Assembly (NCBI RefSeq): GCF_017355835.1 | Contig: NZ_JAFEWF010000017.1 | Span: forward strand, 1-64,000 | DNA length: 64,000 nt | Source of the DNA: Desertivirga brevis | GTDB lineage: Bacteria; Bacteroidota; Bacteroidia; Sphingobacteriales; Sphingobacteriaceae | Direction of reading: 5' to 3' | In this document: positions 15,504 through 64,000 of the stretch, in pieces | Layout of the letters: each line of letters opens with the position of its first letter | Numbering within the stretch: position 1 is the stretch's first letter | Translations under genes and position numbers: made by a program | Notes under the pieces: model-generated | What the model was told of the DNA's origin: nothing | The model's input: only the letters and a program-made list of their open reading frames with translations | The model's database searches: none

Positions 15504-15516
15504 GCTTATTTACCAT

Positions 15517-31820: not shown

Positions 31821-31898
31821 ATCGTTAATTCTCAGCTTAGTAGATTTCCGTTTCTTTTACCTATACCTAGTCGTAATATTAATATTTTTTACACAAAC

Positions 31899-33296: not shown

Positions 33297-33300
33297 AAAT

Positions 33301-35524: not shown

Positions 35525-35740
35525 TTGTTTTAAGCTGAAAGCTTATAGCAGCGAGCACAAAACTCCTACTGAAAGCTCAAAGCCGAAAGCAAAAAGCATA
35601 AAGCTTCTGCTAACGTCTTATCTTTTATCCTTTTTAAAATGAAAGCTCAAGCAGAGCGAACAGCAGCTCTGCTAATCTTACATTTCTTCTTTATTCTTTT
35701 AGCAAAAAAGCTTTCACCTTTCTGCTTTACACTTTCACCT
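35525..35740. repeat. GAAAGC-word repeat between murG and murC
   Basis: The region repeats variants of GAAAGCTC/GAAAGC/AAAGCATAAAGC, and the other end carries their complement (GCTTTCACC, CTGCTTTACACTTTCACC), so it can fold back on itself. There is no coding sequence. It separates two genes of an otherwise tight operon. Confidence 0.6.
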
Positions 35741-36841: not shown

Positions 36842-36847
36842 ATTTTA

Positions 36848-36945
36848 AAAATGATAGAATGAGTGAATGAATGAATGAATGAGTGAATGAAAGAATAAAT
36901 GATTCCATAACTAATTCTATTAATCAATCCTTCTATCCTTCATTC
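36848..36945. repeat. GAATGAATG / CATTCATT fold-back repeat between ftsW and murG
   Basis: A GAATGAGTGAATGAATGAATG tract (about 36853-36895) faces CCTTCTATCCTTCATTCATT (about 36928-36950). A similar unit is at 7346-7410. It lies in a 106-base gap in the dcw operon. Confidence 0.55.
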
Positions 36946-36947
36946 AT

Positions 36948-38144: not shown

Positions 38145-38169
38145 TATATTTTGAGCTTCGGCTTCTATC

Positions 38170-40805: not shown

Positions 40806-42265
40806 TAGCTTAATAAGTTAAATTGTTCTGTTAAAATCGCTTTATCATCAAAAGGATACTTCACCCCTTTTATTTCCTGATATTTCTCGTGTCCTTTTCC
40901 CGCTAAAAGAATGATATCACCAGTTTTAGCCAAATGGCAGGCAGTGCGTATTGCTTCCTTGCGGTCCACTATAGTCAAAACCTTTTTCTTGTTTGTTAAT
41001 GTTAACCCGGATTCCATTTCTTCAATAATGAATTCAGGTTCCTCAGAACGGGGATTATCAGAGGTTAAGATCACTTTATCGCTCCACTCAGATGCTACCT
41101 GGGCCATCAACGGACGTTTCGCCCTATCCCGGTCTCCACCGCATCCAATGATGGTAATTACTTGCTCTGTTCCCTTTCGAATATTTTGAATGGTACTAAG
41201 CACATTTTGCACTGCATCGGGAGTATGTGCGTAATCTATAATTCCTATAACTCCATTAGGAGACACGATATAGTCGAACCTTCCCTCAGCACCCGATAAA
41301 CGACTTAATACTGTCAGAACTTTGGTACTGTCCTGCTCCAGAAGCATCGCTGTTCCATACACTGCTAATAAGTTATAGGCATTGAAGCTCCCTACAAGCT
41401 TAAACCATACCTCCTGGTGGTTAACCTCCAACAACAACCCTGAAAATTGATTTTCAATGATCTTACCTTTGAAATCAGCCAGTCCCCTTAACCCGTAAGT
41501 CTTCTCATGGGCCTTCGTATTTTGAAGCATCACTTTACCATTCTTGTCGTCGGCATTTGTAAGAGCAAAGGCAGTTTTTCCCAATCCATCAAAAAAGGCC
41601 TTTTTAGCCTTTATATAAGCATCAAAAGTTTTATGGAAATCCAGGTGATCATGACTGATATTAGTAAACACCCCACCAGTAAAATTCAGCCCCTCAATTC
41701 GATGTTGAACAACTGCATGAGAGCTTACTTCCATGAAACAGTAATCACAACCCGTAGCAACCATGTCTGCCAGAAGCTTATTTAAAGCAACTGGATCAGG
41801 CGTAGTATGAGTTGATGGCACAACTGTAGTGTGGATATGATTTTGAACAGTTGATATTAATCCTGTCTTATACCCTAGCTCCTCAAACAATTTATATAAA
41901 AGGGTCGCAACAGTGGTTTTCCCATTGGTCCCCGTTACTCCTACCAGCTTAAGATCAGCAGAAGGGTTATCATAAAAGTTCGCTGCAATTCGCCCCAGGG
42001 CGACAGCAGAGTTCTCTACTCTTATAAAAATCACTTCACTATTAGCTTCAGCAGGGATTTCCTCACAAACAATAATTGAAGTACCCAGTGCTGTTGCTTT
42101 GTCAATATAATCGTGACCATCGGCTACAGTACCTCGAACAGCAACAAACAATGAACCCGCTACTGCCTGCCTTGAGTCAAAGCAAACAGAGTGCACTTCG
42201 GAGTTACCTGAGCCTTTTTGCTCCAATACCTTAACGCCTTCCAGTAGTTCTTTTAATTCTTTCAT
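40805..42265 (-). CDS. murE: UDP-MurNAc-Ala-Glu--meso-diaminopimelate ligase
   Basis: It adds the third stem residue. The ATP loop [15 protein letters not shown] is near residue 109, and the DNPRSEEP motif near 405 is the signature that recognises meso-diaminopimelate rather than lysine, so the organism uses DAP-type peptidoglycan. Length 486 is usual. Its start codon shares one base with the ftsI stop (42265). Confidence 0.96.
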
Positions 42266-44388: not shown

Positions 44389-44422
44389 AAGTGTCTGCTA
44401 AAACGGCTAAATAATGCTTTTT

Positions 44423-44830
44423 TTAATATTCGTTTTCTTTTATAATTACTTTTTTAGGAGGCTCTACCGGCTCGTGCAATCCCAGCGTATCTACTAGCTT
44501 GGCTACCTCAGTTTGTGTACTCTTCAGCATCAAATCTGCCTTTAAAGTCTTATAATCCCAGCTCAGCTCCTTCACCTCTTTGTTTAGCTTATCAATCGCC
44601 CTTATGTTCCTTTCCGCGAAGTGCCGGTTTGCGATATAGAACATTCCCAGCATGGCAAGAAAAACAATAAACGGAAGCGTTTCCGTAGCAGCCTCTTTTG
44701 AGACCACGCCCTCCATCAAGAGCGTTGTAAAAAAATTTTTCGGTAGTTCCGCCTTGACCTCCTTCTCCTCAAGCTGCACCTCTGGCTCAAACTCCTCTTC
44801 TTCTGATTCAGCTCTGAAACGGTTTGTCAT
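44423..44830 (-). CDS. ftsL: FtsL-like cell division membrane protein
   Basis: A small bitopic protein of 135 residues. An acidic N-terminal tail (residues 8-32) precedes one membrane helix (about 50-68, TLPFIVFLAMLGMFYIANRHF) and a periplasmic coiled-coil (about 75-115) typical of FtsL. Sequence similarity to E. coli FtsL is negligible; the call rests on topology and the place between rsmH and ftsI. Confidence 0.8.
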   Translation of the reverse strand: MTNRFRAESEEEEFEPEVQLEEKEVKAELPKNFFTTLLMEGVVSKEAATETLPFIVFLAMLGMFYIANRHFAERNIRAIDKLNKEVKELSWDYKTLKADLMLKSTQTEVAKLVDTLGLHEPVEPPKKVIIKENEY

Positions 44831-44917
44831 ATAAAAAATTCAAATTTAATAGTGCAAAAAGCTTCTCCGTGTCAAATTGGGTCAAACCTTACCGAGCCTA
44901 CCCATTCTGCCATTTAT

Positions 44918-45823
44918 CTAAAGCTTAACAGCTACCCTCAACTTTGCACTTCGTGCCCTGTTATTTATTAAAATTTCCTCTTGCGAAGCCACTATCGCCT
45001 TTCTTGTCACAGCCTCCAGTGGCTTAATTTCATTACCAAAGAAGTCCTTCTCAACCTCACCCTTAAACTTTCCCTTTGATATAAAATTTTTCACCAACCT
45101 ATCTTCAAGAGAGTGATAAGACATAATTACCAGTCTTCCTCCAGGCTTCAACACATCTATAGATTGATTCAAAAACTCCTGCAATGCTTCAAGCTCCTGG
45201 TTCACCTCTATTCTGAGGGCCTGAAATACTTGCGCTAAATACTTATGTTCTTTCCCTTTTGGAATAAGCTTTTTTATAACCTCTTTCAATTCAGCGATAG
45301 TCTCTATAGGCCTGTTTAGTCTTGATGTTACGATCACCCTTGCAAGCGATTTTGCATTTTGGATCTCTCCATACATTCCAAAAATCCGGTGCAGGTCCTC
45401 CTCAGAGTAAACATTAACAACCTCCTTCGCATTTAAACTCCCGCCTTGGTCCATCCTCATATCCAACTCAGCATCAAAGCGAGTGGAAAACCCCCGCTCC
45501 GGCTGATCAAACTGATGTGATGAAACACCGAGATCAGCCAGAATACCATCTACAGGCAGTGCCTGATGCAGACGGCAATAGTTTTTTAGATAGCGGAAGT
45601 TTTGATCTATAAAGGTTAACCGATCATCTTGCGGAATATTCCTTTGCGCATCCACATCCTGGTCAAAAGCAAGCAATCTGCCTTTCTCCCCAAGATTCTT
45701 CAAAATCTCTCTTGAATGGCCTCCACCGCCAAAAGTTACATCGACATACGTCCCTTCGGGTTTTATATCCAGCGACTCAATACACTCTTTCAGCATCACA
45801 GGAACGTGATAGTTAATCATCAT
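44918..45823 (-). CDS. rsmH: 16S rRNA (cytosine-1402-N4)-methyltransferase
   Basis: RsmH (MraW) methylates N4 of C1402 in 16S rRNA. The SAM-binding loop DVTFGGGGHSREIL is near residue 30 and DLGVSSHQFD near 95. The start may be ATG 45823 or the adjacent 45820 (M-M-I-N-Y-H); both overlap the last bases of mraZ. A sequence AAGGAGGG lies just upstream, though Bacteroidota ribosomes use Shine-Dalgarno pairing little. I reject the longer frame to 45841, since it adds only MAWEGG over mraZ coding sequence. Confidence 0.95.
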   Translation of the reverse strand: MMINYHVPVMLKECIESLDIKPEGTYVDVTFGGGGHSREILKNLGEKGRLLAFDQDVDAQRNIPQDDRLTFIDQNFRYLKNYCRLHQALPVDGILADLGVSSHQFDQPERGFSTRFDAELDMRMDQGGSLNAKEVVNVYSEEDLHRIFGMYGEIQNAKSLARVIVTSRLNRPIETIAELKEVIKKLIPKGKEHKYLAQVFQALRIEVNQELEALQEFLNQSIDVLKPGGRLVIMSYHSLEDRLVKNFISKGKFKGEVEKDFFGNEIKPLEAVTRKAIVASQEEILINNRARSAKLRVAVKL

Positions 45824-46277
45824 CCCTCCTTCCCAGGCCACCCATTACTTCCTCTGCCAGATTCGCAAAGTTTTCAGGTTCGTTATCCATTTGGGCATCA
45901 TAAGCATCCTTAGCCCAAACTTCTATCTTGTTAAATTGCGAAGACAATACTACATCTGATCCAATTTCAGCATAATCGAGCAATGACTTAGGTAGCAATA
46001 CTCTACCAGCAGCATCCAGAGTTAACTCCGTTGCGCCACGAGTAAAATAGCGAATGAATTCCCTCGTTTTCTTTTCGTACTGATTAAGCTTACTCAAATC
46101 CTCCATTATTTTATCCCACTCACTGCGGGTATACACCACCAGATGCTTCTCGAACCCTCTGTTAATCACCAATCCTTCCTTCTCTGCTTCGGGCATTTGC
46201 CTGCGCAGACCTGAAGGCAGCATCATTCTGCCTTTAGCGTCAAGTTTGCATTCAAATTCTCCTAAGAAGTGAGACAT
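45813..46277 (-). CDS. mraZ: Transcriptional regulator MraZ
   Basis: A 154-residue protein with two AbrB-like SpoVT domains (about 5-55 and 78-125); FECKLDAKGRMMLPSGLRR and ELTLDAAGRVLLPKSLLDYA are the two signature loops. MraZ forms rings and represses its own dcw promoter in E. coli. Here it leads the cluster and faces a set of GTGG repeats upstream that match the known MraZ site style. The last 8-11 bases overlap rsmH. Confidence 0.95.
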   Translation of the reverse strand: MSHFLGEFECKLDAKGRMMLPSGLRRQMPEAEKEGLVINRGFEKHLVVYTRSEWDKIMEDLSKLNQYEKKTREFIRYFTRGATELTLDAAGRVLLPKSLLDYAEIGSDVVLSSQFNKIEVWAKDAYDAQMDNEPENFANLAEEVMGGLGRRDDD

Positions 46278-51878: not shown

Positions 51879-54758
51879 TCATAACTCCATAAAAAACTCA
51901 GCAAGGTTTTTATCATGATCCAGGTTCAGTTTTTTTCTAAGGCGATACCTTCTTATTTCTACTCCGCGAACAGAAATATTTAATAAGGACGCCATTTCTT
52001 TACTGCTCATATTCATACGCAGGTAAGCGCAAAGCTTTATATCGTTAGGAACCAGATCAGGGTACGTAGACTTCAATTTTATAAAGAAGCTCTCGTGGGC
52101 CTCGTTAAAACTCTTTTCAAACAGATTCCAATCCCGCTCATCGTTCATTCCCTCCTCTATTACTTTATTGATTTTTCTTAACTGATCTGAGGCTAGTTTC
52201 TTCCCACCGGAATCTTTCAGGCGACCTAACTCATCTCTTATTTTTTGTAACAGCTCATTCTTATAAACAATATTCATCGCAGAATTGGCCAATTCGCGGT
52301 TCTTCCCCTCCAGATCTAATTGTAACTGCTCATTTTTTAAGGAAACGATCTTCTGCTCATTAGTTATAGCCTCTCTTTGAAGAAGCTCTTCCTGCTCTTT
52401 CTGAAATTTCTGATGTATAAATTCCTGATGCTTTTTAAGTTTAAGATCATAGAAATACTTGATAACAAAGAGCAGAACCAGACCAAGGACAACGTAAAAC
52501 GCCACTGCAAAATTTGTAGCATACCAGGGGGGAAGGATAGTAAACCGCATCACCGTTATCTTCGAAGGATCCCTGCCCCCAACTCTTGCCCTTACCTTAA
52601 AAACATACTCACCATACTTCAGGTTCGTAAAATCCTTTACCGCCAGATTGCTCCATTCTGACCATTTATTGGAATAGCCTTCTAAAAAATATTGATATTC
52701 GACCGCAGTTACGGTATACTCCGGAAGCGAATAGGTTATGCGGATATTATTCCTGCTATAAGGTATTTCAACATCGGTATCTCCGTTTTCGGTTAAGACA
52801 TTTAATGAGTCGGTAATATTTTCAATTTTTCTAATTAATACTTTTGGGAGCGGACCCTTCGGTCGTTTTGTTCGGGTTTCTTTAAAAACCACAAAACCCT
52901 CATCCACACTTATCAGGTAAATGTCTTTGCTTATGCGGCTGATATTTTCGTAATACTGGACCATCCGGCCATTCAAGCTGCTGAATGTCGCATAGTCGAC
53001 GAACAGCTTTCCGGCGTCAATTTCGACTAATGCAACTTTACCGTGATTTATCAACCAATACTTATTCTCAGATGCCTGAATGATACCGTTTGAAGTGGAA
53101 AAAGAACCCAACTTATCATTCAGCTGTGTATAAGGAAAAAACTTGTCAGCAATATCATCATAAATATAAAAACCTGAATTAGAGGAGAAAACAATTCTAT
53201 TATCCAGATTAAAAACATTTACATGAAAATCAGTCGGGAGCCCTGAGCTCTTGTCATAGCTTTTGATAGAAACATCCCGCCTCATCTCTGCGTCCAGTTT
53301 CAGCTTATAAACCCCTCTGTTTGCATGACTCACCCAAATATTCCCTTTAGTATCCTGCTCAACAAAGCGCGAAGGGGAACCAAATCCGCTAACCTTATGC
53401 GAAAAAAACCAGTTTCCCGAAGCATCTTTTTTATAGATTACAAGCCCTGTATAGGTGCCCTGGACCAGAACACCTTGCGAACTAGTAAGCTCTTTTATTG
53501 TCCAACCACCCTTTATCTCGGAGATTTTTTGGAAAGATCCGTTGTCTACTCTGAAAGTCCCCTCGTTATGTCCGCAGAGAAGTTGTCCATCAATTACGGA
53601 AAGGTTCCATACCTGCCCCTGCGATTTTTCAACCAGTTTAAAATCAAAGGAGTGGAACAGTTTATCACTTGAGGACCAGTTGCTGTAATACAAGCCCTGA
53701 TTCGTCCCTAGATAGATCTTATCATTTACAATTATACTGGAATATACCGTCCCCAGTTTCCCGGCTTTATCCACGTAAAAATAAAGAGGAGAAGTTATGT
53801 CAATACGGTCTATTCCATTATCCAGGCCCACCCATAGGTCTTGTTTATCATCCGTAAACAAGCTTAATACAGTATTATTCTGCAGTCCCGCCGATTTATT
53901 AACCCGCTGTACAACATTACCAGATCCATCAACAATGACTATTCCGTCCAGTATGGTACCGAAAGCAAAATACCCCCCCGGTAAAGCCACTCCATTGTTA
54001 AGCTGATTTTTCTTGAGAAGCGCATTTGCCTGGATCTCCCAGGGACTAATCGTCTTGCCATCGTAAATAAAAAGTCCCTCTCTGGCAGTACCAATAAGAT
54101 GACTATTCCCTTTAAAAGGTAAAATCGTTAAGATTCCATCTTTTAAAAACTCGCTACCAGGAATAAATCTCAAATCTTTCCCAACCAGCTCATACAAACC
54201 CTCAGATATTATTCCTGCGAAAAACCGCTTGCCGCTTTTATTTAAGAAAAGAAAAGATTGTTTGGGCTTAACAATACTTATCCCCTCATTTTCATAAATG
54301 TAGATGGTTGAAAACGACTGAAAAATCACCCGCTCCCCGTCAACAAAAATCTTCCAGATCTCATCCTGTGAAACGGATTTACTATCAATTTTTGTGGCAA
54401 GTGATGTATAAGTAAACCGGCCCTTATTGTTGTACGACCAATAACCAAACTCGCCGAAACCACCGACGTAAAGCTTGCCTTTTTTATCAGATGCAACTGC
54501 TCTTACTATCAGGCGGTTGGGCATTTGATATAACTCCCAATGTTTGCCATCAAAGGCCAGTACCCCTTCAGAATTGCCGAAATACATGACGCCTCTTTCA
54601 TCTTTGGTCACGGACCAGTTTTGATTTCCGGCCTGATAAACCGACTTTGGGTAGTTCTGAACGTAGGGGGCCCCTACATTTTTTATTTCAATAGCATAAG
54701 TCAGGAAAGGCAAACAAAAAAGAACAATAAAACACAAAAGCTCAAATGGTCTCTTCAT
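51879..54758 (-). CDS. One-polypeptide membrane regulator: propeller, Y_Y_Y, TM, LuxR-like HTH
   Basis: A 959-residue protein with a signal peptide (about 1-22), many two-component-propeller repeats in the periplasm (about 30-690, e.g. GDFWSVTKDERGVMYFGNSEG-like units), a Y_Y_Y (triple tyrosine) domain (about 690-760), one membrane helix (about 763-785), a long coiled coil (about 790-880), and a C-terminal LuxR-type HTH (MSSKEMASLLNISVRGVEIRR near 915). There is no histidine kinase or receiver domain, so it differs from hybrid two-component PUL regulators while sharing their sensor. It sits at the 3' side of a PUL and is the likely regulator of it. Confidence 0.88.
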   Translation of the reverse strand: MKRPFELLCFIVLFCLPFLTYAIEIKNVGAPYVQNYPKSVYQAGNQNWSVTKDERGVMYFGNSEGVLAFDGKHWELYQMPNRLIVRAVASDKKGKLYVGGFGEFGYWSYNNKGRFTYTSLATKIDSKSVSQDEIWKIFVDGERVIFQSFSTIYIYENEGISIVKPKQSFLFLNKSGKRFFAGIISEGLYELVGKDLRFIPGSEFLKDGILTILPFKGNSHLIGTAREGLFIYDGKTISPWEIQANALLKKNQLNNGVALPGGYFAFGTILDGIVIVDGSGNVVQRVNKSAGLQNNTVLSLFTDDKQDLWVGLDNGIDRIDITSPLYFYVDKAGKLGTVYSSIIVNDKIYLGTNQGLYYSNWSSSDKLFHSFDFKLVEKSQGQVWNLSVIDGQLLCGHNEGTFRVDNGSFQKISEIKGGWTIKELTSSQGVLVQGTYTGLVIYKKDASGNWFFSHKVSGFGSPSRFVEQDTKGNIWVSHANRGVYKLKLDAEMRRDVSIKSYDKSSGLPTDFHVNVFNLDNRIVFSSNSGFYIYDDIADKFFPYTQLNDKLGSFSTSNGIIQASENKYWLINHGKVALVEIDAGKLFVDYATFSSLNGRMVQYYENISRISKDIYLISVDEGFVVFKETRTKRPKGPLPKVLIRKIENITDSLNVLTENGDTDVEIPYSRNNIRITYSLPEYTVTAVEYQYFLEGYSNKWSEWSNLAVKDFTNLKYGEYVFKVRARVGGRDPSKITVMRFTILPPWYATNFAVAFYVVLGLVLLFVIKYFYDLKLKKHQEFIHQKFQKEQEELLQREAITNEQKIVSLKNEQLQLDLEGKNRELANSAMNIVYKNELLQKIRDELGRLKDSGGKKLASDQLRKINKVIEEGMNDERDWNLFEKSFNEAHESFFIKLKSTYPDLVPNDIKLCAYLRMNMSSKEMASLLNISVRGVEIRRYRLRKKLNLDHDKNLAEFFMEL

Positions 54759-54793
54759 TCCAGACTGGTCAGTTTCGAATTTCTAGTAGGGGA

Positions 54794-54826
54794 TAAATGT
54801 AGCAAAATGAACTAATAGTATACAAA
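54794..54826 (-). promoter_or_regulatory. Candidate promoter of the membrane regulator
   Basis: On the minus strand TTTG (54823-54826), 21 bases, then TACATTTA (54794-54801), one mismatch from TAnnTTTG. It lies 36 bases before the ATG. Confidence 0.4.
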
Positions 54827-54875
54827 GGAAGGCTTAAACCTGTAATAAATCCTTTCAGATGACTTTAAATTTCGA

Positions 54876-55688
54876 TCAGTTAAACAGACGCCTTAACCAG
54901 CTTTTCTTCTCATGAGAAAAAAGCCAGTTTAACAAGCCTGGCTCAGCAAAAGCAGGATCCCAGCTATTGTGATTGGCATTAGCATAGTGAGTATATCGAA
55001 CAGAACCTCCCAGTTTTTTCATTTCATTTACCACCACTTCTGAATGTTTCGGCGGGACAACGTCGTCTTTGCCTCCATGAAACACCCATAAAGGAACTCT
55101 TCTGTACTTCTTGACATTGGCAATATGGTCTCCTCCGCAAATAGCAAACGAAGCAGCAAACGTTTTATCTTTCCTTCTTAAGATTTCGAAGGTACCCATT
55201 CCCCCCATAGATAAACCTCCAACATAAACCCTCCTTTTATCGACAAACGGATTCCTTAGAAAATCATTAGTAAAATCCAGGAGCATCTGCATGGCCAGAG
55301 TGGGTTCTCCGCCCTCTATAAAGTTAAAATGCCGTTTGCCGGAACTATCAGTAACAATATTTACATTAGCCCAGTAGCTGTCGGCAGGACACTGAGGAAA
55401 TATAACAATAGCGGAATGACGACTACGGATGCTATCCCGAAGGAACATCTTCCCTCCATGAGTTAATTGTTTTTGATTGTCTTTCCCGCTCTCTCCCCTC
55501 CCATGCAGAAATAACATTACCGGGTACTTTTTCCCGGGATCGAAATTCTCGGGGTAAAGTATCCGGTAAGGAAGTGTATCGGCTTTTGAAATGAACAGCC
55601 GTTTTTGGTATAGATCAAGGTTTTGAGCCTTAGCGCCTGCCACACAAAGTATAATGAAGAGGACTGGCAAAAAAGAAATTCGTTTCAT
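54876..55688 (-). CDS. Secreted alpha/beta hydrolase (esterase-like, prolyl oligopeptidase family fold)
   Basis: A 270-residue protein with a signal peptide cut near residue 21 (VAGAKAQ), the oxyanion-hole segment MLFLHGRGESGKDN, nucleophile serine in GLSMGG (near 175), aspartate in HGGKDDVVPP and histidine in ANANHNSWD, a complete catalytic triad. Proteins of this type often act as carbohydrate esterases in PULs. It lies between the GH3 gene and the regulator, 184 bases from GH3. The actual substrate is unknown. Confidence 0.82.
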   Translation of the reverse strand: MKRISFLPVLFIILCVAGAKAQNLDLYQKRLFISKADTLPYRILYPENFDPGKKYPVMLFLHGRGESGKDNQKQLTHGGKMFLRDSIRSRHSAIVIFPQCPADSYWANVNIVTDSSGKRHFNFIEGGEPTLAMQMLLDFTNDFLRNPFVDKRRVYVGGLSMGGMGTFEILRRKDKTFAASFAICGGDHIANVKKYRRVPLWVFHGGKDDVVPPKHSEVVVNEMKKLGGSVRYTHYANANHNSWDPAFAEPGLLNWLFSHEKKSWLRRLFN

Positions 55689-55872
55689 TTACAGTTCTTT
55701 AATTCAGTATTTGGAGCCCCAGTCTGCCGGCTGACAGTTCAGTTTCAACTCCTCACTACTTTTCAAAGGAAATTATTTTTAAGGCAATCAATAAGTCAGA
55801 GGATCCTTAAAAATCCCTTGACTTATTAACTTTCCTAATTTAAGAAGATTTACCTTCAGGATTCCAGCCGGA

Positions 55873-58158
55873 TCACCTGTTCAGTCTAAAATCTGCTTCT
55901 TTTACGTCCCGGCTGTTCGTGCCGATGAATAACTTAAAATCCCCCGGCTCGGCCACAAAGTTTAAGTCGGAATTATAGAATTTAAGATCTTCTTCTGTGA
56001 TATCAAATTGCACCGTCCGCGACTCGCCTGCCTTTAAATGGATTTTCTGGAACCCTTTTAATTCCTTAACGGGCCTCGTTACGCTCCCTACCAGATCCCG
56101 TATATAAAGTTGTACAACTTCCTGTCCCTCTCTCGATCCGGTATTACTCACCGAAATACTTGCAGTAATTTTTTCACCGGGCTTAAAAGACGATTTGTCC
56201 AGCTTAATGTCTCCATAGTTGAATGTCGTATAACTCAGTCCGAAGCCAAATGGATAAAGAGGATCATTTGAAACATCGAGATAATTGGATCTGAATTTTT
56301 CGAACCACTTTCCCTGAGCTAAAGGTCTTCCTGTATTTTTATGATTATAGAAAAGAGGAACCTGTCCGACATTTTGCGGGAAAGTGGCGGTTAGCTTTCC
56401 CGAAGGGTTAACGTCACCGAATAATACGTCGGCAACAGCATTTCCAGCTTCCGTACCGCCGAACCATACATTTAAAATAGCTGGCACGTTTTCATCCTCC
56501 CACTTTAAAGCGAGGGGCCGGCCAGTGAACAATACCAATACTACTGGTTTGCCCGTTTGCAGTAAGGCTTTTAACAGGTCTTTTTGCACATCAGGAATTT
56601 CTATGTTGGTGCGACTGGAACTTTCTCCACTCATTTCGGCTGATTCGCCTAAAGCAGCAACAATTACGTCGGATTTTCTGGCGACGGCCAATGCTTCTTT
56701 TAATATAACATCCGCCGGACGTTTATCCCTGTTGAGCGTTTTACCGAACATGGTCGCCCTTTCTTCTAGCGCACTATCAGCCGTTAGATTAGAACCTTTA
56801 GCGTATAGTACTTTTGCCTTATTCCCCAGCACATTTTGCAGTCCTGCCTGTACAGATATTGATTGCTTAAAATCGGCAGCCACACTCCATGTACCCGGCA
56901 TATTCTCTTTGGCGTCTGCCAGCGGACCAATCAGAGCGATAGTGCCGCTCTTTTTTAAGGGCAGAACATTGTTTTGGTTCTTAAGCAATACGAACGATTG
57001 AGCAGCGATATTTCTTGCTTCACGGCGGTTAGACTCAGTAAGAATCTCGGTTTTGCTGCGCTGAACATCACAATAACGAAAAGGATCTTCAAACAGCCCA
57101 AGTTTATATTTTGCCTCCAAAATTCTGCGGCAGGCAATATCTATCTGCTCCTGTGTAATCTTTTTCTCTTGTAAGGATTGCTTCAAAGTTGTTAAAAAGC
57201 CCTCTCCTACCATATCCATATCTACACCAGCTTTCAAGGATAAGGCAGAAACCTCTTTTAAATTCCCCAAACCATGATCTACCATCTCATTGATGGCTGT
57301 ATAATCAGTAACCACAAAGCCATCAAAGCCCCATTGTTTGCGCAGCACGTCTGTCATCAACCACTTATTCGCACTTGCAGGGATGCCGTGTACCTCATTA
57401 AATGACGTCATCACACTTCCTACGCCGGCATCTATTGCGGCTTTATAGGGTAAAAAGTACTCGTTATACATCCTCAGGCGGCTCATGTCGGTGGTATTAT
57501 AATCCCTTCCCGCTTCAATTGCTCCATACAAAGCAAAGTGCTTCACACAAGCCATGATCGTATTGTTTTTGCTAAGGTCCGACTGCTGATAACCCCTTAC
57601 CATCGCTTTTGCAATCTGCGCTCCGATGTAGGGATCTTCCCCTGAACCTTCCGACATTCGCCCCCACCTCGGATCGCGGGAAACATCTACCATCGGAGAA
57701 AAGGTCCAGTTAATCCCGTCGGCACTTGCCTCAATTGCTGCAATTCTGGCGCTCCTTTCAATCAAGGTCATGTCCCAGGTGCTTGATAAACCCAGTGGAA
57801 TGGGGAATACGGTTTGGTAGCCGTGGATCACGTCCATTCCGAATAATAAAGGAATTTTTAAGCGACTGCTTTCTACTGCTATTTTTTGTACATCCCTGAT
57901 CTTTTCTACTGACTTTATATTAAATAAACCGCCAACCTGCCCCTCCCTGATTTTTTGTGCAATACCTGCGCTTGAAGCTTGTCCGGTAGTAATATCACCG
58001 GCCGAGGGTAAATTAAGCTGGCCTATCTTTTCATCCAGCGTCATTTTCTTCATAAGTCCGGAGATAAACTGGTTCATCTTTCTGGCATCCTGACTTTGGG
58101 CCGTTGCTCCCGTTGCTGTCATTATGAATAAAACCGCAAAAACTTTTATAAACTTCAT
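55873..58158 (-). CDS. GH3 beta-glucosidase, BglX-like
   Basis: A 761-residue secreted glycoside hydrolase family 3 enzyme that releases terminal beta-glucose. A signal peptide (about 1-21, TGATAQ) is followed by the N-terminal barrel with nucleophile Asp in GFVVTDYTAI near residue 285, the beta-sandwich domain, and a C-terminal Fn3-like domain (about 670-758). Length and architecture match BglX. In GH144-containing loci the GH3 partner cleaves sophorose and longer beta-1,2-glucooligosaccharides. Confidence 0.93.
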   Translation of the reverse strand: MKFIKVFAVLFIMTATGATAQSQDARKMNQFISGLMKKMTLDEKIGQLNLPSAGDITTGQASSAGIAQKIREGQVGGLFNIKSVEKIRDVQKIAVESSRLKIPLLFGMDVIHGYQTVFPIPLGLSSTWDMTLIERSARIAAIEASADGINWTFSPMVDVSRDPRWGRMSEGSGEDPYIGAQIAKAMVRGYQQSDLSKNNTIMACVKHFALYGAIEAGRDYNTTDMSRLRMYNEYFLPYKAAIDAGVGSVMTSFNEVHGIPASANKWLMTDVLRKQWGFDGFVVTDYTAINEMVDHGLGNLKEVSALSLKAGVDMDMVGEGFLTTLKQSLQEKKITQEQIDIACRRILEAKYKLGLFEDPFRYCDVQRSKTEILTESNRREARNIAAQSFVLLKNQNNVLPLKKSGTIALIGPLADAKENMPGTWSVAADFKQSISVQAGLQNVLGNKAKVLYAKGSNLTADSALEERATMFGKTLNRDKRPADVILKEALAVARKSDVIVAALGESAEMSGESSSRTNIEIPDVQKDLLKALLQTGKPVVLVLFTGRPLALKWEDENVPAILNVWFGGTEAGNAVADVLFGDVNPSGKLTATFPQNVGQVPLFYNHKNTGRPLAQGKWFEKFRSNYLDVSNDPLYPFGFGLSYTTFNYGDIKLDKSSFKPGEKITASISVSNTGSREGQEVVQLYIRDLVGSVTRPVKELKGFQKIHLKAGESRTVQFDITEEDLKFYNSDLNFVAEPGDFKLFIGTNSRDVKEADFRLNR

Positions 58159-58233
58159 ATAATCAATCTTAAAAACCTTATATTTTTATTCTTTAGATAT
58201 ACACGCGTATCCCTGATCATACGCAGCTGTTTT

Positions 58234-59970
58234 TCATTCCACTTTCACCGGCCTGGTCCTTGTTGAAATTCCATTTTCGTTAAAGGCTTCTATGGAAAAG
58301 TAATACGGCTGATCCACCGTCAAACTTTTAAGCTCCAGGGAGTTTTTGTCGTAAACCATCCAGGAGTTATACAACTTATCAGGTGCTATGCCCCAGAGGA
58401 TATTATATCCTTGCGCACCCGGTTCTTTACGCCAGCTTATCATAGCATCACGGCGATCTTTTTTCCTGTTTACGCTAAACTCCTTTACTGCCGCGGGAGC
58501 TTTTCCTTCTCCCTTTCCAAATACACGAATTCCTGAAATTGCAAGGTTTGGGGTCGGAACATGAATATTTTTATACCGGATAAACCGGAAAGTTCCGGGA
58601 GTTGTAAGCTCAACATAATCATTAGGAACGTCCTTGTAATTGTTGGAGCGGTCGACTAAAACATGCCAGCTTTTTCCATCTTCCGAACCTTCTATTAAGT
58701 ACTGGTGACGCAGCTCCATGATCTTTCCATAGAGATCTGATTTATAATCGTGATAGTTTACCTGGATCGCATAAACCTTCGCTGGTTTCTGAAGATCAAT
58801 CTGGAGCCACTGGGTATCATCATTTCTCCCTGCAAGCCAAAAAGTCTTCACACTTTCATCAGTGGTATTCTGTGCAGTATTCGCCCCCTGAGCGGATGAA
58901 GAGGTCACCGGCTTTTTATATGATAGAAGCATCCAACCAGTGAACTGTCCCTGTTTGCCATGGGTTGCAGGCGCATAATGAGGGTAATCGCCGAAAGAAG
59001 TGTTCGAGTACATCAGCCCATCTTTATCAAAAAAGGTTGGAAACATACAGAGACGCCTTTCCCAGTTCATATTCATAGAAAGAGCCATGGAGGCAAAATG
59101 CCAATAGGTGTTTTGAGGGCCAATCACCGTGCTACCATGCCCGGCACCATTCATAAAACCTCCGGGCTTGTACGAAAAAGGATTGTTGGGCATGTATTTA
59201 AATGGCCCGAGGGGGGAATCACTGATATAAGCCCCATCTCCATACACATTAAATTCGGTACCCGGAGCTGCATATTGCAGATAATATTTGTTGTTATGCT
59301 TAGTCATCCAGGGACCTTCCATGTATCCTTCGAGGGAAGTATCTGAATGGTTTTCACCAAACCTTTCCCATCCATGCTTCGCCTCATCGAGATTAAATAG
59401 CTCGTAAGTCTTATCAGAGGGCCGGAAGCGCAGATCCTTATCTACTGTTTTGGCTTTGATAGGAAATGTATTCGAAGAGCCCCAATACAGATATCCCTTT
59501 CCGTCATCGTCAATAAACAAAGCCGGATCCTGAAGATTATTTAGGATCGCAGGAACAGCTTTCCAGTCCCCCTTTTTCGGATTATCCGTATAAAGAACGC
59601 TCATTGAACCCGAAGGATCTCCTGCAACATATAATACCGAATCTTTATAGTTATGAGCCGCCGGAGCATTTGATCCCTGAAAATACCACTTCTCAGGTTG
59701 TATAAATGTCCAGTTGTTAAGATCAGTGGAATGCCAGTATCCCAGAGAGCGGGTTACAAACATGTAATACTCATTCCTGAATTTCACTACAGCCGGGTCA
59801 GCGCCTGAACGATAAGAAATACCCTCGTTGGCATTATAGATGGCATAAGTATAATCTATGTTCAGAGGATTACAATAGGTACTGGCCTGCATAGATTGCG
59901 CGGAAAGATGAGTCAAGCTGCAGGCCGCCACTACAGCGCTGCTTAAAAATTTCTTTACTTCCTGATACAT
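58234..59970 (-). CDS. GH43-like enzyme with F5/8C and fibronectin type III domains
   Basis: A 578-residue secreted protein. The five-bladed propeller of GH43 covers about 30-350, with the three expected acids: Asp in RSGADPAVV near residue 59, Asp in LQDPALFID near 148, and Glu in YMEGPW near 220. A discoidin (F5/8 type C) sugar-binding domain (about 365-475) and an Fn3 domain (about 490-578) follow. GH43 enzymes usually cleave arabinose, xylose or galactose, so its presence in a glucan locus is notable. It lies four bases after the GH144 gene. Confidence 0.85.
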   Translation of the reverse strand: MYQEVKKFLSSAVVAACSLTHLSAQSMQASTYCNPLNIDYTYAIYNANEGISYRSGADPAVVKFRNEYYMFVTRSLGYWHSTDLNNWTFIQPEKWYFQGSNAPAAHNYKDSVLYVAGDPSGSMSVLYTDNPKKGDWKAVPAILNNLQDPALFIDDDGKGYLYWGSSNTFPIKAKTVDKDLRFRPSDKTYELFNLDEAKHGWERFGENHSDTSLEGYMEGPWMTKHNNKYYLQYAAPGTEFNVYGDGAYISDSPLGPFKYMPNNPFSYKPGGFMNGAGHGSTVIGPQNTYWHFASMALSMNMNWERRLCMFPTFFDKDGLMYSNTSFGDYPHYAPATHGKQGQFTGWMLLSYKKPVTSSSAQGANTAQNTTDESVKTFWLAGRNDDTQWLQIDLQKPAKVYAIQVNYHDYKSDLYGKIMELRHQYLIEGSEDGKSWHVLVDRSNNYKDVPNDYVELTTPGTFRFIRYKNIHVPTPNLAISGIRVFGKGEGKAPAAVKEFSVNRKKDRRDAMISWRKEPGAQGYNILWGIAPDKLYNSWMVYDKNSLELKSLTVDQPYYFSIEAFNENGISTRTRPVKVE

Positions 59971-59974
59971 AGAT

Positions 59975-61327
59975 TTATTTTAAATGAGGGCTTTCAAAAC
60001 CCAATTTTTTTAATCCTTGCTTTATTTCAGGCGAGCTCATAAAGAGATTCCATAAAAGACCAGTCCGGTGGTTTTCCATCATTACCACAACGGGGCCCTG
60101 ATCAATAGCCAGATAACGCTTCGGGTACCAGTTTGCAGTTTCACTAAAAGCATCATAGAAGCCGTACTCTCCCCACACCTTATCTTTCATGTTATTATAC
60201 CAGTGTCTCATAGCTCTGGCAGATTGTTCGGGGATATAAGGAAAAGAAGATAAAGCAGCAGTAGGAGCAATAACCCCCAGATCACCCGATTCTGAAGGTG
60301 CATGCCCTGCATACCCTTTTACCGAGTAGCTCGCAGTAAGTCCCCAGCTATCAGGACCATAGCCTTTGTATCCTTTCGGATTAGTAACACACCAGGTATA
60401 GTTAATTAATGCATGGTTGATGTTTTCCTGCCAGTAATCAGCGTACCGGTCTTTCAATCCCCGGGGATCTAAACCTAAATAAGAATAATGAGCCCAGAAG
60501 AGTGGCCCTCCATTTGGAGCGCCATGGTGTCTTAACTGGAGCTTGTAGCCCAAGCTCTCTTTTGGTTCTACCATCTTGCCGTTTTCTGCCCAGCCCTGAT
60601 GGTATACCTCAGCAGGAACTCCATAGGTTGGAGAGGAAGCGGCTAACACGTACATGATCAGGCACTCGTTATACCCTGTCACTTCAAAGTTCATTGCCCA
60701 TTCATTCTTCGGGCTCCAATGCCATAACAAAACATTCTTCCCGTTTCTGTACCAGTTAAAATCAATTTCCTTCCATAACTGGTCGGCCCTTGAAGCCAGC
60801 TTTTTTTCCTCTGCGTTTCCTTTGTTGAAATATTGTCTCACACACAACAGGCCCTGCGCCATAAAAGAGGTTTCTACCAGGTCGCCGCCATCATCTTTGG
60901 AGCTAAACGGCTTCACTCTACCAGTTTCACCATCCAGCCAATGAGGCCAGGCCCCATGAAAGCGGTCTGCCTTCTCGAGAAATCCTACTATCTTTTCCAG
61001 ACGTTGCCGTCCCTCATCACGTGTAATAAACCCCCTTTCTATGCCAACCAGGATGGCCATTACACCGAAGCCTCCCCCGCCTGAGGTAACGATATTCTTA
61101 TCATTTTGAGGATACAGGCCATCCATGTGGATACGCTCCCTGGCTAATCCTGAATTTTCTTCAGCTCCATCCCAGAAGTATTGGAAGGTTTGTTTTTGAA
61201 CCAATGTAAATAAGGTATCCTTACTAATCTCATCATTACTCTTCTGAGCAACATTCACTGATGTCTTACATGCGCCCAGAAGCGCTCCAAGCAGTAAGGT
61301 AAAGAGATAAATGTGTGTTTTTTTCAT
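59975..61327 (-). CDS. GH144-type beta-1,2-glucanase (glucoamylase-like domain), lipoprotein
   Basis: A 450-residue protein with a lipobox (LLGALLGAC, Cys20) and the (alpha/alpha)6 domain once called glucoamylase-like. The segment KQTFQYFWDGAEENSGLARER near residue 48 and later TSGGGGFGVMAILVGIERG are characteristic of the family now classed GH144, whose characterised members are endo-beta-1,2-glucanases or sophorohydrolases. Lipid anchoring suggests a surface or periplasmic location. Similar domains occur in GH162/GH189 relatives, so the family call should be confirmed. Confidence 0.82.
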   Translation of the reverse strand: MKKTHIYLFTLLLGALLGACKTSVNVAQKSNDEISKDTLFTLVQKQTFQYFWDGAEENSGLARERIHMDGLYPQNDKNIVTSGGGGFGVMAILVGIERGFITRDEGRQRLEKIVGFLEKADRFHGAWPHWLDGETGRVKPFSSKDDGGDLVETSFMAQGLLCVRQYFNKGNAEEKKLASRADQLWKEIDFNWYRNGKNVLLWHWSPKNEWAMNFEVTGYNECLIMYVLAASSPTYGVPAEVYHQGWAENGKMVEPKESLGYKLQLRHHGAPNGGPLFWAHYSYLGLDPRGLKDRYADYWQENINHALINYTWCVTNPKGYKGYGPDSWGLTASYSVKGYAGHAPSESGDLGVIAPTAALSSFPYIPEQSARAMRHWYNNMKDKVWGEYGFYDAFSETANWYPKRYLAIDQGPVVVMMENHRTGLLWNLFMSSPEIKQGLKKLGFESPHLK

Positions 61328-61386
61328 TTCTTAGCATTGATGTATGAATGCGTATCAAATTCCCCCTGATTGATACAGAAAAAGGA

Positions 61387-61419
61387 AGGGCATCCGGTGG
61401 TTTTAACCCCGGATGCCCT
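61387..61419 (-). terminator. Strong intra-PUL hairpin between LamG and GH144 genes
   Basis: An 11-bp perfect GC-rich stem (AGGGCATCCGG at 61387-61397 with 61409-61419) is followed on the minus strand by CCTTCCTTTTTCTG. It lies 10 bases after the LamG stop and could be a partial terminator or 3' stabiliser separating susCD-LamG from the enzyme genes. Confidence 0.7.
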
Positions 61420-61428
61420 ATTCAGAAT

Positions 61429-62349
61429 TTACTTATTAACCTTACCCAGATTATACAGGGACTTAATATGAGCATCGGGAAGAGCAACATTATATATGCG
61501 CATTTCATCAATATTGCCTGTCATAGGGGCAAAATCTGTATTAGTGTTCACCTGTTTGCCCGGGATACCGTTATAATTTGATCCGATGATGATTTCACTC
61601 GGTTCGTACGACTTAAATAGATTGTTTCCTGTTCCCCGATTTGAAAAGGCACCAATTTTTTGTCCATCAGCCCAAATGTTGAATACTCCCGTAGTCCCTT
61701 CATAAGTTATAAGAACATGGGTCCACTTTTCCATACCTATGGTTGGTGTGAGATAGGGAACATAATTTGGATCGCCGGGGTTATCACGTCTGGTATTGAT
61801 ATTATCCTGCATTCCTCCACCCACACTTGTAAAAGTAGGCTGTATTTTTAGTTCGCTGGTATTTGAAGCGGGGAAGCTCTGAGTGTTTAAATGGAAATTA
61901 ATACTACCGTTAAAAATCCCCGGCCTCGCCAACTGAAACAGCATAGTACGTTTTGATCCATTATTCAGAATCTGTATCCATGAGCTTATGGTAAAACTCT
62001 TAAATACATCCGTTTTAAACTTCTCGAACTGGGTGGGGAAGTACAAATAGCCTGATTGCAGCTTTAGTGCCTTACCTCTGACTCCGCCGTCAATAAAACT
62101 ATCCCCAGCAGTTTGTGCAGGCGCGGTATTACTCAGCGTCTCGTTTTTAGTATCATCGAACGACCAGTATGCTACAAGGTTATTCGGAAATATTTCATCA
62201 GAACTGGTATACCCATCGATCTTGCCTTCATAGTCCCGGGGATCGACATCCGGTAAATTATTAGGGTTGCCATCTTTTTTGCAGCCAGAGAAAAGCGATA
62301 TAGCCAGGATCAGCCCTGAGAAAAAATATATTTTTTTGGAAGTAATCAT
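61429..62349 (-). CDS. LamG-domain lipoprotein, candidate surface glycan-binding protein
   Basis: A 306-residue protein with a lipobox (ISLFSGC, Cys23) and one LamG/concanavalin-like jelly roll (about 75-300; VAYWSFDDTKNETL, then FTISSWIQI and FNIWADGQKIGAFS). It comes directly after susD, the usual place of SusE/SusF-like glycan-binding proteins. No catalytic residues of the GH16 type are visible, so binding rather than cleavage is likely. Confidence 0.82.
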   Translation of the reverse strand: MITSKKIYFFSGLILAISLFSGCKKDGNPNNLPDVDPRDYEGKIDGYTSSDEIFPNNLVAYWSFDDTKNETLSNTAPAQTAGDSFIDGGVRGKALKLQSGYLYFPTQFEKFKTDVFKSFTISSWIQILNNGSKRTMLFQLARPGIFNGSINFHLNTQSFPASNTSELKIQPTFTSVGGGMQDNINTRRDNPGDPNYVPYLTPTIGMEKWTHVLITYEGTTGVFNIWADGQKIGAFSNRGTGNNLFKSYEPSEIIIGSNYNGIPGKQVNTNTDFAPMTGNIDEMRIYNVALPDAHIKSLYNLGKVNK

Positions 62350-62366
62350 GTCAATAGATTTAAGGT

Positions 62367-63890
62367 TTAAAATCCTGGATTCTGTTTCAAAACACCTTTA
62401 CTTAGGTCGATTTGGGTTTGTGGGATCGGTAAGATTTCATCTCTCCCTGTAACAAAGTTTTTTCCGGCCTCCTGTAATACTGGTCCGGCAATACCCCATC
62501 TCACCAGGTCGAAAAACCGATCGTGTTCCATTGCCAACTCCACTCTTCGTTCATGACGTATCGCCTGGCGTAATAATTCCGGATCGGTGGTCGTAACTCT
62601 GGGAAGAATAGCATTATTTCCCGCTCTTGCACGAGCTCTCACAAGCTCCAGCTTATCTAAGGCCCCAGTGACATCACCCGTTTCGTTAGCCGCTTCTGCG
62701 TACATTAATACTACGTCTGCATAGCGGAGGATACGAACGTTCATCCAATAACCGAAATTGTCCAGGTATCTTGCACGGTAAGAGGGATTACTTAACACTT
62801 TATGATTGTATCGAGGATTAGGTAATCCAGAAGGTACCGCTTCATTATAGATAGAGGTTTGTCCTGTATACAAGATTGTCCTCGCCCTTCGAGGGTCCCC
62901 AGGCTCGTAAGTACCTTCCAAAAGCGTACTGGGGGTATTAAACCCGTTTCCTAAATTCCATCTTTCTGTTCCTCTTACTCCCTGATCGCTGGCATACTGA
63001 ACTCCAAAGGACCTTTTTTCGTTAGGCGTCGCGGTTGCCTGAATTTCAAACACTGATTCTTTCGAATTTTCCCCGCTCTCTCCAAAAATAGTATTGTAAG
63101 AAGTGCTTAAATCGTACAGCCCCGATTGCATCACAAGATTCGCTGTACTTTTGGCTAAGGCCCATTTTTGCTGGGTGAGATAAACTTTTGCCAAAATTCC
63201 GTTTGCAGCTCCACTGGTGGCTCTTCCTATAAACTTAGCTTCCCAGCTTGGGGGAAGGTTCTGTGCAGCAAACTGAAGATCAGATTCAATGAACGCATAA
63301 ATTTGGGCGGGACTGCTTTGAGGCAAATTCGCCTGGGCTGCGGCATCCGTAAATATAGAGTCAACAATAGGTACCCTGCCGAAATAGCGCACCATCATGA
63401 AATAGGCATATCCTCTGATAAATCTTGCTTCAGCTTGTGCTACTGTCTTTGCTTCGGGAGCAGTGAGCGGACTTTCATCCTTGGCTACCTGATCCAAAAT
63501 GATATTACACCTGTTAATCAGACTAAAATGATCTACCCATAATATATTTAATAAGTTATTTGAAGGGTTCAGGGTAAAGTTATCAAACTGCAAACTTGAT
63601 GGTCCATCGGCCGGCGTACTACCTTTTTCTGCATCATCACTCCTTATACTTACTGCCGCAATAAAAGGAGCAGCAGAGACGCCATATGCTCTTAGTGCAT
63701 TGTATGCCTCAAAAATGGTCGGATCATAAGGTCCTGATCCTGTCGGATAAGGATATGTACTTTCTGTATATTGTCCCTGGGTTGTTCGGTCAAGAAAATC
63801 CTTTTTACAGCCCAGTAAAGTTGAAATGAAAATAAGAAGCAGTAATCCCAGTCCTATTTTCCTTTTCATTTGTTGATGATATGTTTTCAT
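62367..63890 (-). CDS. RagB/SusD family outer-membrane lipoprotein
   Basis: A 507-residue SusD homologue that captures oligosaccharides and delivers them to the SusC channel. It has a lipobox ending STLLGC (Cys27 or so), the FIRGYAYFMMVRYFGRVPIV segment typical of SusD TPR helices, and the C-terminal RHERRVELAMEHDRFFDLVRWG. I start at the first ATG (63890); the frame is open to 63899 with a TTG. It lies 23 bases after the SusC stop. Confidence 0.93.
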   Translation of the reverse strand: MKTYHQQMKRKIGLGLLLLIFISTLLGCKKDFLDRTTQGQYTESTYPYPTGSGPYDPTIFEAYNALRAYGVSAAPFIAAVSIRSDDAEKGSTPADGPSSLQFDNFTLNPSNNLLNILWVDHFSLINRCNIILDQVAKDESPLTAPEAKTVAQAEARFIRGYAYFMMVRYFGRVPIVDSIFTDAAAQANLPQSSPAQIYAFIESDLQFAAQNLPPSWEAKFIGRATSGAANGILAKVYLTQQKWALAKSTANLVMQSGLYDLSTSYNTIFGESGENSKESVFEIQATATPNEKRSFGVQYASDQGVRGTERWNLGNGFNTPSTLLEGTYEPGDPRRARTILYTGQTSIYNEAVPSGLPNPRYNHKVLSNPSYRARYLDNFGYWMNVRILRYADVVLMYAEAANETGDVTGALDKLELVRARARAGNNAILPRVTTTDPELLRQAIRHERRVELAMEHDRFFDLVRWGIAGPVLQEAGKNFVTGRDEILPIPQTQIDLSKGVLKQNPGF

Positions 63891-63913
63891 GTTTGTCAAG
63901 ACCTAAAGGTTAA

Positions 63914-64000
63914 TTAAAAAGTTGCGTTTACTCCGAAAGTGTATGTTGCGGGAACAGGATAGACCCCATTGTCAGCACCTCCACCTAAAATATTACCAAT
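63914..64000 (-). CDS. SusC/RagA TonB-dependent outer-membrane transporter, C-terminal fragment
   Basis: Only the last 28 residues are in the window, reading GADNGVYPVPATYTFGVNATF before the stop. The pattern (YPxPxTYTFGVNxxF, terminal phenylalanine) is the C-terminal strand of SusC-type TonB-dependent transporters, and it directly precedes susD. The gene continues beyond the right edge. Confidence 0.88.
   Translation of the reverse strand: MGNILGGGADNGVYPVPATYTFGVNATF

What the first reader, a model, noticed from the sequence alone, without database searches (positions are those of the whole stretch)
51879..64000. Probable beta-1,2-glucan utilisation locus with unusual extra activities
Gene order on the minus strand is SusC, SusD, LamG lipoprotein, GH144-type lipoprotein, GH43-like/F5-8C/Fn3, GH3, secreted alpha/beta hydrolase, propeller-HTH regulator. 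GH144 (endo-beta-1,2-glucanase or sophorohydrolase) with GH3 is a known pairing for beta-1,2-glucan breakdown in Bacteroidota. The GH43-like protein and the esterase-like hydrolase are not needed for plain beta-1,2-glucan. They raise the inference that the target is a substituted glucan, for example a pentose- or galactose-decorated one or an acylated (succinylated or acetylated) cyclic glucan.
Basis: partly seen in the sequence, partly recalled or inferred. Interest (0 to 1): 0.75.

Follow-up and report, generated by a model that had tools for sequence, protein, structure and literature searches.

The report
Bacteroidota locus for substituted β-1,2-glucans
This stretch carries a gene set that a Bacteroidota bacterium probably uses to eat bacterial β-1,2-glucans; the set is a common kind, but one of its enzymes (a GH43-family protein) turns out to be a near-constant, little-known partner of the β-1,2-glucanase rather than an odd extra.

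Summary
In detail: end of SusC, SusD, LamG lipoprotein, GH144, a GH43/F5-8C/Fn3 protein ("GH43L"), GH3, an α/β-hydrolase (EST) and a propeller/Y_Y_Y regulator, all on the minus strand. GH144 is CpSGL-like (745 bits) with the activity-critical and clan-defining residues kept; GH3 is close to BT3567. A β-1,2-glucan utilisation locus is well supported by sequence; nothing was assayed. GH144 loci are a known, abundant type.

"Unusual extra activities" is not supported. GH43L sits within six genes of GH144 in 64 of 80 related loci. In a 296-genome phylum sample, 55 of 59 genomes with GH43L also have GH144, against 39 of 237 without. EST relatives of at least 46% identity lie within 6 kb of GH144 in 15 of 19 cases.

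Many such loci carry interchangeable decoration-removing genes (esterases, sulfatases, phosphodiesterases, once an EST–phosphoesterase fusion). A pentose or galactose decoration is neither supported nor excluded. If the substrate is glucose only, GH43L would be a glucose-active GH43: the part worth testing.

The parts
63914..64000 (-). C-terminal tail of SusC (28 residues; the rest lies beyond the window)
   Evidence: reading frame ends ...YPVPATYTFGVNATF-stop just before SusD; identification by position and tail only
62367..63899 (-). SusD-like outer-membrane lipoprotein
   Evidence: PF07980 104.9 bits, PF14322 93.8 bits; lipobox LLGC
61429..62349 (-). LamG/concanavalin-like lipoprotein, probable surface glycan-binding protein
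   Evidence: PF13385 50.1 bits; lipobox FSGC; a LamG-labelled gene is present in 27 of 64 GH144-containing related loci
59975..61327 (-). GH144 lipoprotein, predicted endo-β-1,2-glucanase
   Evidence: 745 bits to CpSGL (5gzh, 5gzk); residues matching CpSGL D135, D139, E142, E211, F268, Y330 kept in 117 of 117 aligned sequences, the window's included
58234..59970 (-). GH43L: secreted GH43 five-bladed propeller + F5/8 type C + Fn3
55873..58158 (-). secreted GH3 β-glucosidase
   Evidence: BglX model 976 bits against cut-off 666; 1268 bits to JMB19063 (3u48), 1174 bits to 5xxl, which I recall to be BT3567
54876..55688 (-). EST: secreted α/β-hydrolase, predicted acyl esterase
   Evidence: best solved relative is named esterase, 3doh, 146 bits; GLSMG motif at 158-162, each residue kept in at least 25 of 26 aligned sequences
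51879..54758 (-). propeller / Y_Y_Y regulator with C-terminal helix-turn-helix-like end
   Evidence: Reg_prop and Y_Y_Y; relatives lead many of the related loci

Best explanation
A polysaccharide utilisation locus for natural β-1,2-glucans of bacterial origin (osmoregulated periplasmic glucans or cyclic β-glucans) that carry ester-type substituents. Inferred working order: SusD and the LamG lipoprotein capture the glucan at the cell surface; lipoprotein GH144 cuts the β-1,2 backbone; SusC imports oligosaccharides; in the periplasm EST removes acyl groups, GH43L removes a residue that GH144 and GH3 cannot pass, and GH3 releases glucose; the propeller regulator senses the oligosaccharide. Shown here by sequence: gene content, family identities, conserved catalytic residues, and the conserved linkage of GH43L and EST to GH144. 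Inferred: the substrate, the localisations, and what GH43L and EST act on.
For: GH144 and GH3 identities and residues. GH43L within six genes of GH144 on the same strand in 64 of 80 loci. Of the 16 others, 15 genomes could be searched: 13 hold a GH144 match (two of these partial, 146 and 195 residues) and two hold only 34-37-residue fragments at 82-84% identity, one of them at a contig end; L078 is not held. 55 of 59 GH43L-positive genomes have GH144, against 39 of 237 others; within GH97-positive genomes 49 of 51 against 26 of 81. EST at 46% identity or more: 19 of 19 in GH144 genomes, 15 of 19 within 6 kb. 38 of 64 GH144 loci hold at least one decoration-removing gene: ester hydrolase in 27, sulfatase in 16, phosphodiesterase-like in 9. 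EST fused to a calcineurin-like phosphoesterase in L038. A GDPD beside GH43L or GH144 in 8 genomes. Natural cyclic β-1,2-glucan carries succinyl or glycerophosphoryl groups at C6 (PMC7569799, abstract); OPGs of E. coli carry phosphoglycerol, phosphoethanolamine and succinyl (PMC3818809, abstract and passages).
Against: No activity or expression data. 26 of 64 GH144 loci show none of the decoration genes I looked for. The GDPD evidence is mostly one lineage (seven hits of 76-100% identity, one at 57%; the other 24 of 32 hits lie elsewhere, compared by eye), and where read in full it goes with the distant GH43L group, not the window's. Sulfatases are not explained by the OPG substituents named in the papers I read. 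A GH144 locus of B. xylanisolvens contains a β-1,2-galactosidase that does not touch β-1,2-glucooligosaccharides (PMC11739564, passages), so some GH144 loci may target other glycans. Four GH43L-positive genomes lack GH144. GH144 also correlates with an unrelated family, GH97, so part of the co-occurrence is lifestyle.
Confidence: 0.66

Rival explanations
1. The target is a heteropolysaccharide: a β-1,2-glucan backbone bearing L-arabinofuranose, D-xylose or galactofuranose, which GH43L removes as ordinary GH43 enzymes do.
For: GH43 fold and an intact acidic triad; most solved GH43 relatives listed are named xylosidase, xylanase, arabinofuranosidase or arabinanase; a sulfatase lies within 400 bp of GH43L in 15 of 106 cases, also in loci without GH144 (L050, L060, L077), which fits a removable, decorated side sugar; a β-1,2-galactosidase occurs in another GH144 locus (PMC11739564, passages).
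Against: OPGs contain glucose as the sole sugar (PMC3818809, abstract and passages). Identity to solved GH43 enzymes is at most 24% in the rows listed, too low to carry substrate over. GH43L follows GH144 across the phylum sample, so the side sugar would have to be very widespread.
Confidence: 0.3
2. GH43L acts on glucose itself, for instance on the β-1,6-glucosyl branches of OPGs or on β-1,2-glucooligosaccharide ends, as an inverting exo-glucosidase.
For: Strong co-occurrence with GH144, with GH144-linked members in both deep groups of the tree; OPG backbones are glucose only with β-1,6 branches (PMC3818809, passages); precedent of a family name misleading in a GH144 cluster (GH35 transferase, PMC8861115, passages).
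Against: No GH43 known to me acts on glucose (recall, not searched); a GH3 already serves that role here; the pocket was not modelled with ligand.
Confidence: 0.33
3. The locus targets another β-1,2-linked glycan (plant sophorosides, an exopolysaccharide, a marine sulfated polymer) and β-1,2-glucan is incidental.
For: GH144 loci with sulfatases were read by others as evidence of an unknown, widespread marine polysaccharide (PMC6499787, passage); B. xylanisolvens case.
Against: The window's GH144 is very close to CpSGL, a proven endo-β-1,2-glucanase, and no sulfatase is seen in the part of the locus inside the window.
Confidence: 0.2

Closest known systems
Chitinophaga pinensis CpSGL (founding GH144, PDB 5gzh/5gzk)
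   Same: 745 bits over nearly the full length; same length class without a long N-terminal extension; the compared activity and clan residues kept
   Different: The gene neighbourhood of CpSGL was not compared (its paper, PMC5418048, is not held)
Bacteroides thetaiotaomicron BT3567 (GH3; PDB 5xxl by recall). A B. thetaiotaomicron β-glucosidase from an SGL cluster acting on β-1,2-glucan is named in PMC8861115 and PMC11842490 (passages)
   Same: 1174 bits over the whole protein
   Different: JMB19063 (3u48) scores higher still (1268 bits), so strict β-1,2 preference cannot be read from sequence
GH144 PULs of Bacteroidetes, including marine ones with a sulfatase (PMC6499787, passages, supplement not seen; Maribacter cluster in PMC8072126, passage; fosmid PULs with SusCD, GH3 and GH144 in PMC6550366, passages)
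   Same: SusCD + GH144 (+ GH3), described as one of the abundant PUL types
   Different: The passages read mention sulfatase and GH3 but no GH43 or esterase partner; the supplement of PMC6499787 may list GH43 subfamilies
B. xylanisolvens PUL with GH144 and the β-1,2-galactosidase Bxy_22780 (PMC11739564; passages read)
   Same: SusCD + GH144 + a second exo-acting family
   Different: Second enzyme is GH35, not GH43; it did not act on β-1,2-glucooligosaccharides
Ignavibacterium album GH144 cluster with GH35 β-1,2-glucosyltransferase (PMC8861115; passages read)
   Same: GH144 + GH3 with an enzyme whose family name misled
   Different: Has GH94 and an ABC transporter part; 'GH43' has 0 occurrences in the main text
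BT_3662 (PDB 5msx), GH43 with an F5/8-type C-terminal domain
   Same: Same order of propeller and F5/8C domain; top Foldseek hit
   Different: 18% (Foldseek) to 23% (VIA, rmsd 6.5 over 379 residues) identity; substrate not carried over

Membership tests
GH144 (endo-β-1,2-glucanase) | Full-length sequence similarity to CpSGL | tested here: met
   745 bits, residues 33-450
GH144 (endo-β-1,2-glucanase) | Residues matching CpSGL E211 (general acid position), F268, Y330 and D135, D139, E142 (named in PMC12102758, passages) | tested here: met
   E221, F277, Y339, D145, D149, E152 in the window protein; 117 of 117 aligned sequences. D409, matching CpSGL D400, is D in 106 and N in 11. Positions mapped from the phmmer alignment
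GH144 (endo-β-1,2-glucanase) | Endo-hydrolysis of β-1,2-glucan | not testable with these tools
   needs an assay
GH43 | Pfam GH43 profile and five-bladed propeller fold | tested here: met
GH43 | Asp/Asp/Glu catalytic triad | tested here: met
   D58, D148, E218 align with the matching motifs of 4qqs and 3kst and are invariant in 86 of 86. That these positions are catalytic is recalled
GH43 | A numbered CAZy subfamily | not tested
   no CAZy subfamily models on hand; no structure above 24% identity in the 50 rows listed
BT3567-type GH3 β-glucosidase | GH3 domain architecture and whole-length similarity | tested here: met
BT3567-type GH3 β-glucosidase | Preference for β-1,2-glucooligosaccharides | not testable with these tools
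   needs an assay; JMB19063 is closer by score
CAZy carbohydrate esterase (CE) family | Match to a CE family | tested here: inconclusive
   only general α/β-hydrolase and depolymerase-type models match, the NCBIfam ones all below their cut-offs; no CAZy models on hand
Polysaccharide utilisation locus (PUL) | Adjacent susC/susD pair with CAZymes | tested here: met
   SusD complete; SusC only as a 28-residue tail at the window edge; genes of about 1000 residues in that place in many relatives

The most novel reading that the evidence does not exclude
GH43L defines a GH43 subfamily dedicated to β-1,2-glucans: a near-constant partner of GH144 that acts on glucose residues (for instance the β-1,6 branches of osmoregulated periplasmic glucans), something I do not know of for any GH43. 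Together with swappable esterases, phosphodiesterases and sulfatases it would form a modular system by which Bacteroidota strip and eat the substituted envelope glucans of other bacteria.
Probability: 0.33. Interest if true: 0.62.

Novelty: new member of a known kind. Interest (0 to 1): 0.42.

Why it matters
GH144 loci are reported as abundant in Bacteroidota (PMC6499787), yet in the passages I read nobody discusses the GH43 protein that accompanies GH144 (see Tried and rejected for what was and was not opened). If it acts on glucose it extends a large, well-studied family to a new sugar. If it removes another sugar, an unknown widespread glycan exists. Either answer is reachable with one purified protein and glucans that can be prepared. 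The esterase, phosphodiesterase and sulfatase variants also suggest that bacterial envelope glucans with succinyl and phosphoglycerol groups may be a common food source.

Tried and rejected
Idea that GH43L and EST are locus-specific extras: rejected.

Idea that GH43L reflects a different substrate wherever GH144 is not nearby: weakened. In the 15 searchable genomes of the close group the genome still holds GH144 or a fragment. The distant group is often away from GH144, with housekeeping or mixed neighbours among the genes I chose to scan, and gave no clear alternative substrate.

Idea of degenerate catalysis in GH43L (a binding protein): rejected, triad invariant.

Substrate from the closest solved structure: not usable. 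Foldseek and VIA give GH43 enzymes at 12-24% identity in the rows listed, with many tied scores.

Promoter-like and terminator-like sites were not significantly more than in shuffles (19 against a mean of 25.0; 13 against 11.9, sd 3.7). Rfam at gathering thresholds found nothing in the window. No tRNA.

GH43 subfamily number: not obtainable (no CAZy models).

Co-occurrence control: GH97 also correlates with GH144 (75 of 132 against 19 of 164), more weakly, so part of the GH43L signal is general saccharolytic lifestyle; the signal stays within GH97-positive genomes. In that call the line marked 'N wrong' used a wrong total and is discarded. Species are not independent, so the Fisher values are descriptive.

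SGNH esterase as a GH144-locus marker: only loosely so. Of 23 matches at 40% identity or more in the 296 genomes, 9 lie within about 10 kb of a GH144 or GH43L position, compared by eye.

Lipobox pattern counts across relatives were mixed (GH144: 46 lipoprotein-like, 62 signal-peptide-like, 10 neither; GH43L: 10, 89 and 6). The same pattern labels the window's GH43L 'lipo'; I read it as a plain signal peptide from its relatives. Localisation stays an inference.

Literature: GH144 with GH43, 2-glucanase, sophorose, esterase, sulfatase, PUL; periplasmic glucans with PULs, 0 papers. Of the 21 papers that hold both GH144 and GH43 I opened passages of 5 (PMC6499787, PMC6550366, PMC7922503, PMC8072126, PMC9122927), and in three of those (PMC6550366, PMC7922503, PMC9122927) only around GH144; the other 16 were seen as listings. 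None of what I read describes a GH43 partner of GH144, but that is not proof that none is in print. The library is open-access only and supplements were not readable.
Full report
What is there. All eight genes are on the minus strand with short gaps. SusC is present only as its last 28 residues at the window edge. No whole genome is held for the window, so the upstream side of the locus could not be seen.

Core identity. The PF10091 protein matches CpSGL (5gzh, 5gzk) with 745 bits over residues 33-450. The positions that PMC12102758 (passages) gives as general acid, clan markers and activity-critical residues of CpSGL (E211; F268, Y330; D135, D139, E142) are all present, and they are invariant in 117 of 117 aligned GH144 sequences. 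The protein is of the short, CpSGL-like size (450 residues), unlike the 712-residue BDI_3064 (5z06, 430 bits; recalled to be the sophorohydrolase). GH3 matches 5xxl (recalled to be BT3567) with 1174 bits and JMB19063 (3u48) with 1268 bits. GH144 plus this GH3 make β-1,2-glucan the best-supported target.

GH43L is not an extra. A genome scan with GH43L gave 122 relatives, of which the best 80 were kept (59-78% identity, nearly all labelled Bacteroidota). This set is chosen by similarity. In 64 of 80 loci a GH144 lies within six genes on the same strand, often directly beside it; GH3 is in 58 of those 64. For the other 16, 15 genomes could be searched: 13 hold GH144 (two of these as partial matches of 146 and 195 residues), and two hold only 34-37-residue fragments at 82-84% identity, one of them at a contig end. 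L078 is not held.

Independent sample. In 296 genomes drawn evenly from the phylum, GH43L relatives (E up to 1e-30) occur in 59 and GH144 (E up to 1e-50) in 94, with 55 shared. Only 39 of the 237 genomes without GH43L have GH144. All 8 genomes with GH43L at 56% identity or more have GH144. In 28 of 59 the two genes lie within 10 kb. As a control, GH97 (132 genomes) also goes with GH144 but more weakly (75 of 132 against 19 of 164); among GH97-positive genomes the GH43L link remains, 49 of 51 against 26 of 81. The search scored at most four GH43 candidates per genome.

Tree. A quick tree of 106 GH43L proteins (midpoint root) shows two groups: one of 86 rows that holds the window protein, and one of 20 rows at about 40-48% identity. 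Members within 8 kb of a GH144 occur in both (68 of 86 and 8 of 20). Twelve of the 20 are not so linked, and the four genomes that lack GH144 all carry proteins of this second group.

EST. In the 296 genomes, 48 EST matches fall into two kinds. Of 19 at 46% identity or more, all are in GH144 genomes and 15 lie within 6 kb of GH144. Of 29 below that, 4 lie within 6 kb. EST is thus a recurrent GH144-locus enzyme.

Decoration-removing genes. Among the 64 GH144-containing loci, 38 hold at least one of: EST (20), SGNH/GDSL esterase (12), SGSH-type sulfatase (16), calcineurin-like phosphoesterase (6), endonuclease/exonuclease/phosphatase-type (4). Pfam supports each type on example proteins, and the counts are by BLAST likeness to those examples. 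L038 has EST fused to a calcineurin-like phosphoesterase. Across the 296 genomes 32 have a relative of it; the eight best matches lie beside GH144 or GH43L positions, seven of them at 76-100% identity and so mostly one lineage, and the other 24 do not (by eye). The SGNH esterase is only loosely bound to GH144 (9 of 23 matches at 40% or more, by eye). 26 of 64 loci show none of these genes.

Why this matters for the substrate. Cyclic β-1,2-glucan of Sinorhizobium carries succinyl or glycerophosphoryl groups at C6 (PMC7569799, abstract). OPGs of E. coli have a glucose-only β-1,2 backbone with β-1,6-linked glucose branches, substituted with phosphoglycerol, phosphoethanolamine and succinyl (PMC3818809, abstract and passages). 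Esterases and phosphodiesterases in GH144 loci fit these substituents. Sulfatases do not, and were read by others as pointing to an unknown marine polysaccharide (PMC6499787, passage).

What GH43L might do. If the substrate is a glucose-only glucan, GH43L must act on glucose or be explained otherwise. If a side sugar exists, it must be very widespread in GH144 substrates. Two precedents show that family names can mislead in GH144 clusters, or that such clusters hold other activities: a GH35 β-1,2-glucosyltransferase (PMC8861115) and a GH35 β-1,2-galactosidase (PMC11739564), both seen as passages. I put the glucose-active reading and the ordinary side-sugar reading at about equal odds.

Verdict. 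The locus is a good example of a known, common PUL type. The open point of interest is the GH43 group that follows GH144.

Noticed in passing
L038:11755-13464: EST relative (40% identity) fused to a calcineurin-like phosphoesterase in a GH144 locus of Bacteroides sp. 51; suggests the two act on one substrate.
   Followed up: yes
   Followed up: partly
L050:4312-10165, L077:8416-14401: Sulfatase - GH43L - GH92 triplets in Sphingobacterium, away from GH144; the target is unclear.
   Followed up: partly
L006:16621-19522, L012:19240-21009, L016:19244-21013, L024:18625-21523: Pontibacter loci carry a second GH43L (56-57%) with a sulfatase near it and, in L006 and L024, a sulfatase-maturing FGE-type gene beside it.
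   Followed up: partly
L026:6719-7474, L039:2817-3611: 3-keto-disaccharide hydrolase domains (PF06439) in GH144 loci, 5 of 70 scanned neighbours, with GFO/IDH/MocA oxidoreductases in 3 of 70; a possible oxidative side route.
   Followed up: no
L017, L032, L046: Records labelled Williamsia, Thalassovita and Margulisbacteria carry GH43L proteins that fall among Bacteroidota in the tree; possibly mis-binned contigs.
   Followed up: no
window 13506-17976: CBM48/α-amylase-type enzyme beside a GH31 α-glucosidase-type protein, a second carbohydrate gene pair.
   Followed up: no
window 18313-19302: LuxE-like acyl-protein synthetase (PF04443, 49.8 bits); the genes around it were not examined for a lux operon.
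   Followed up: no
window about 30165-46277: A run of minus-strand genes that by size and order looks like the division/cell-wall cluster with mraZ at 45813-46277 (read by eye, not searched).
   Followed up: no
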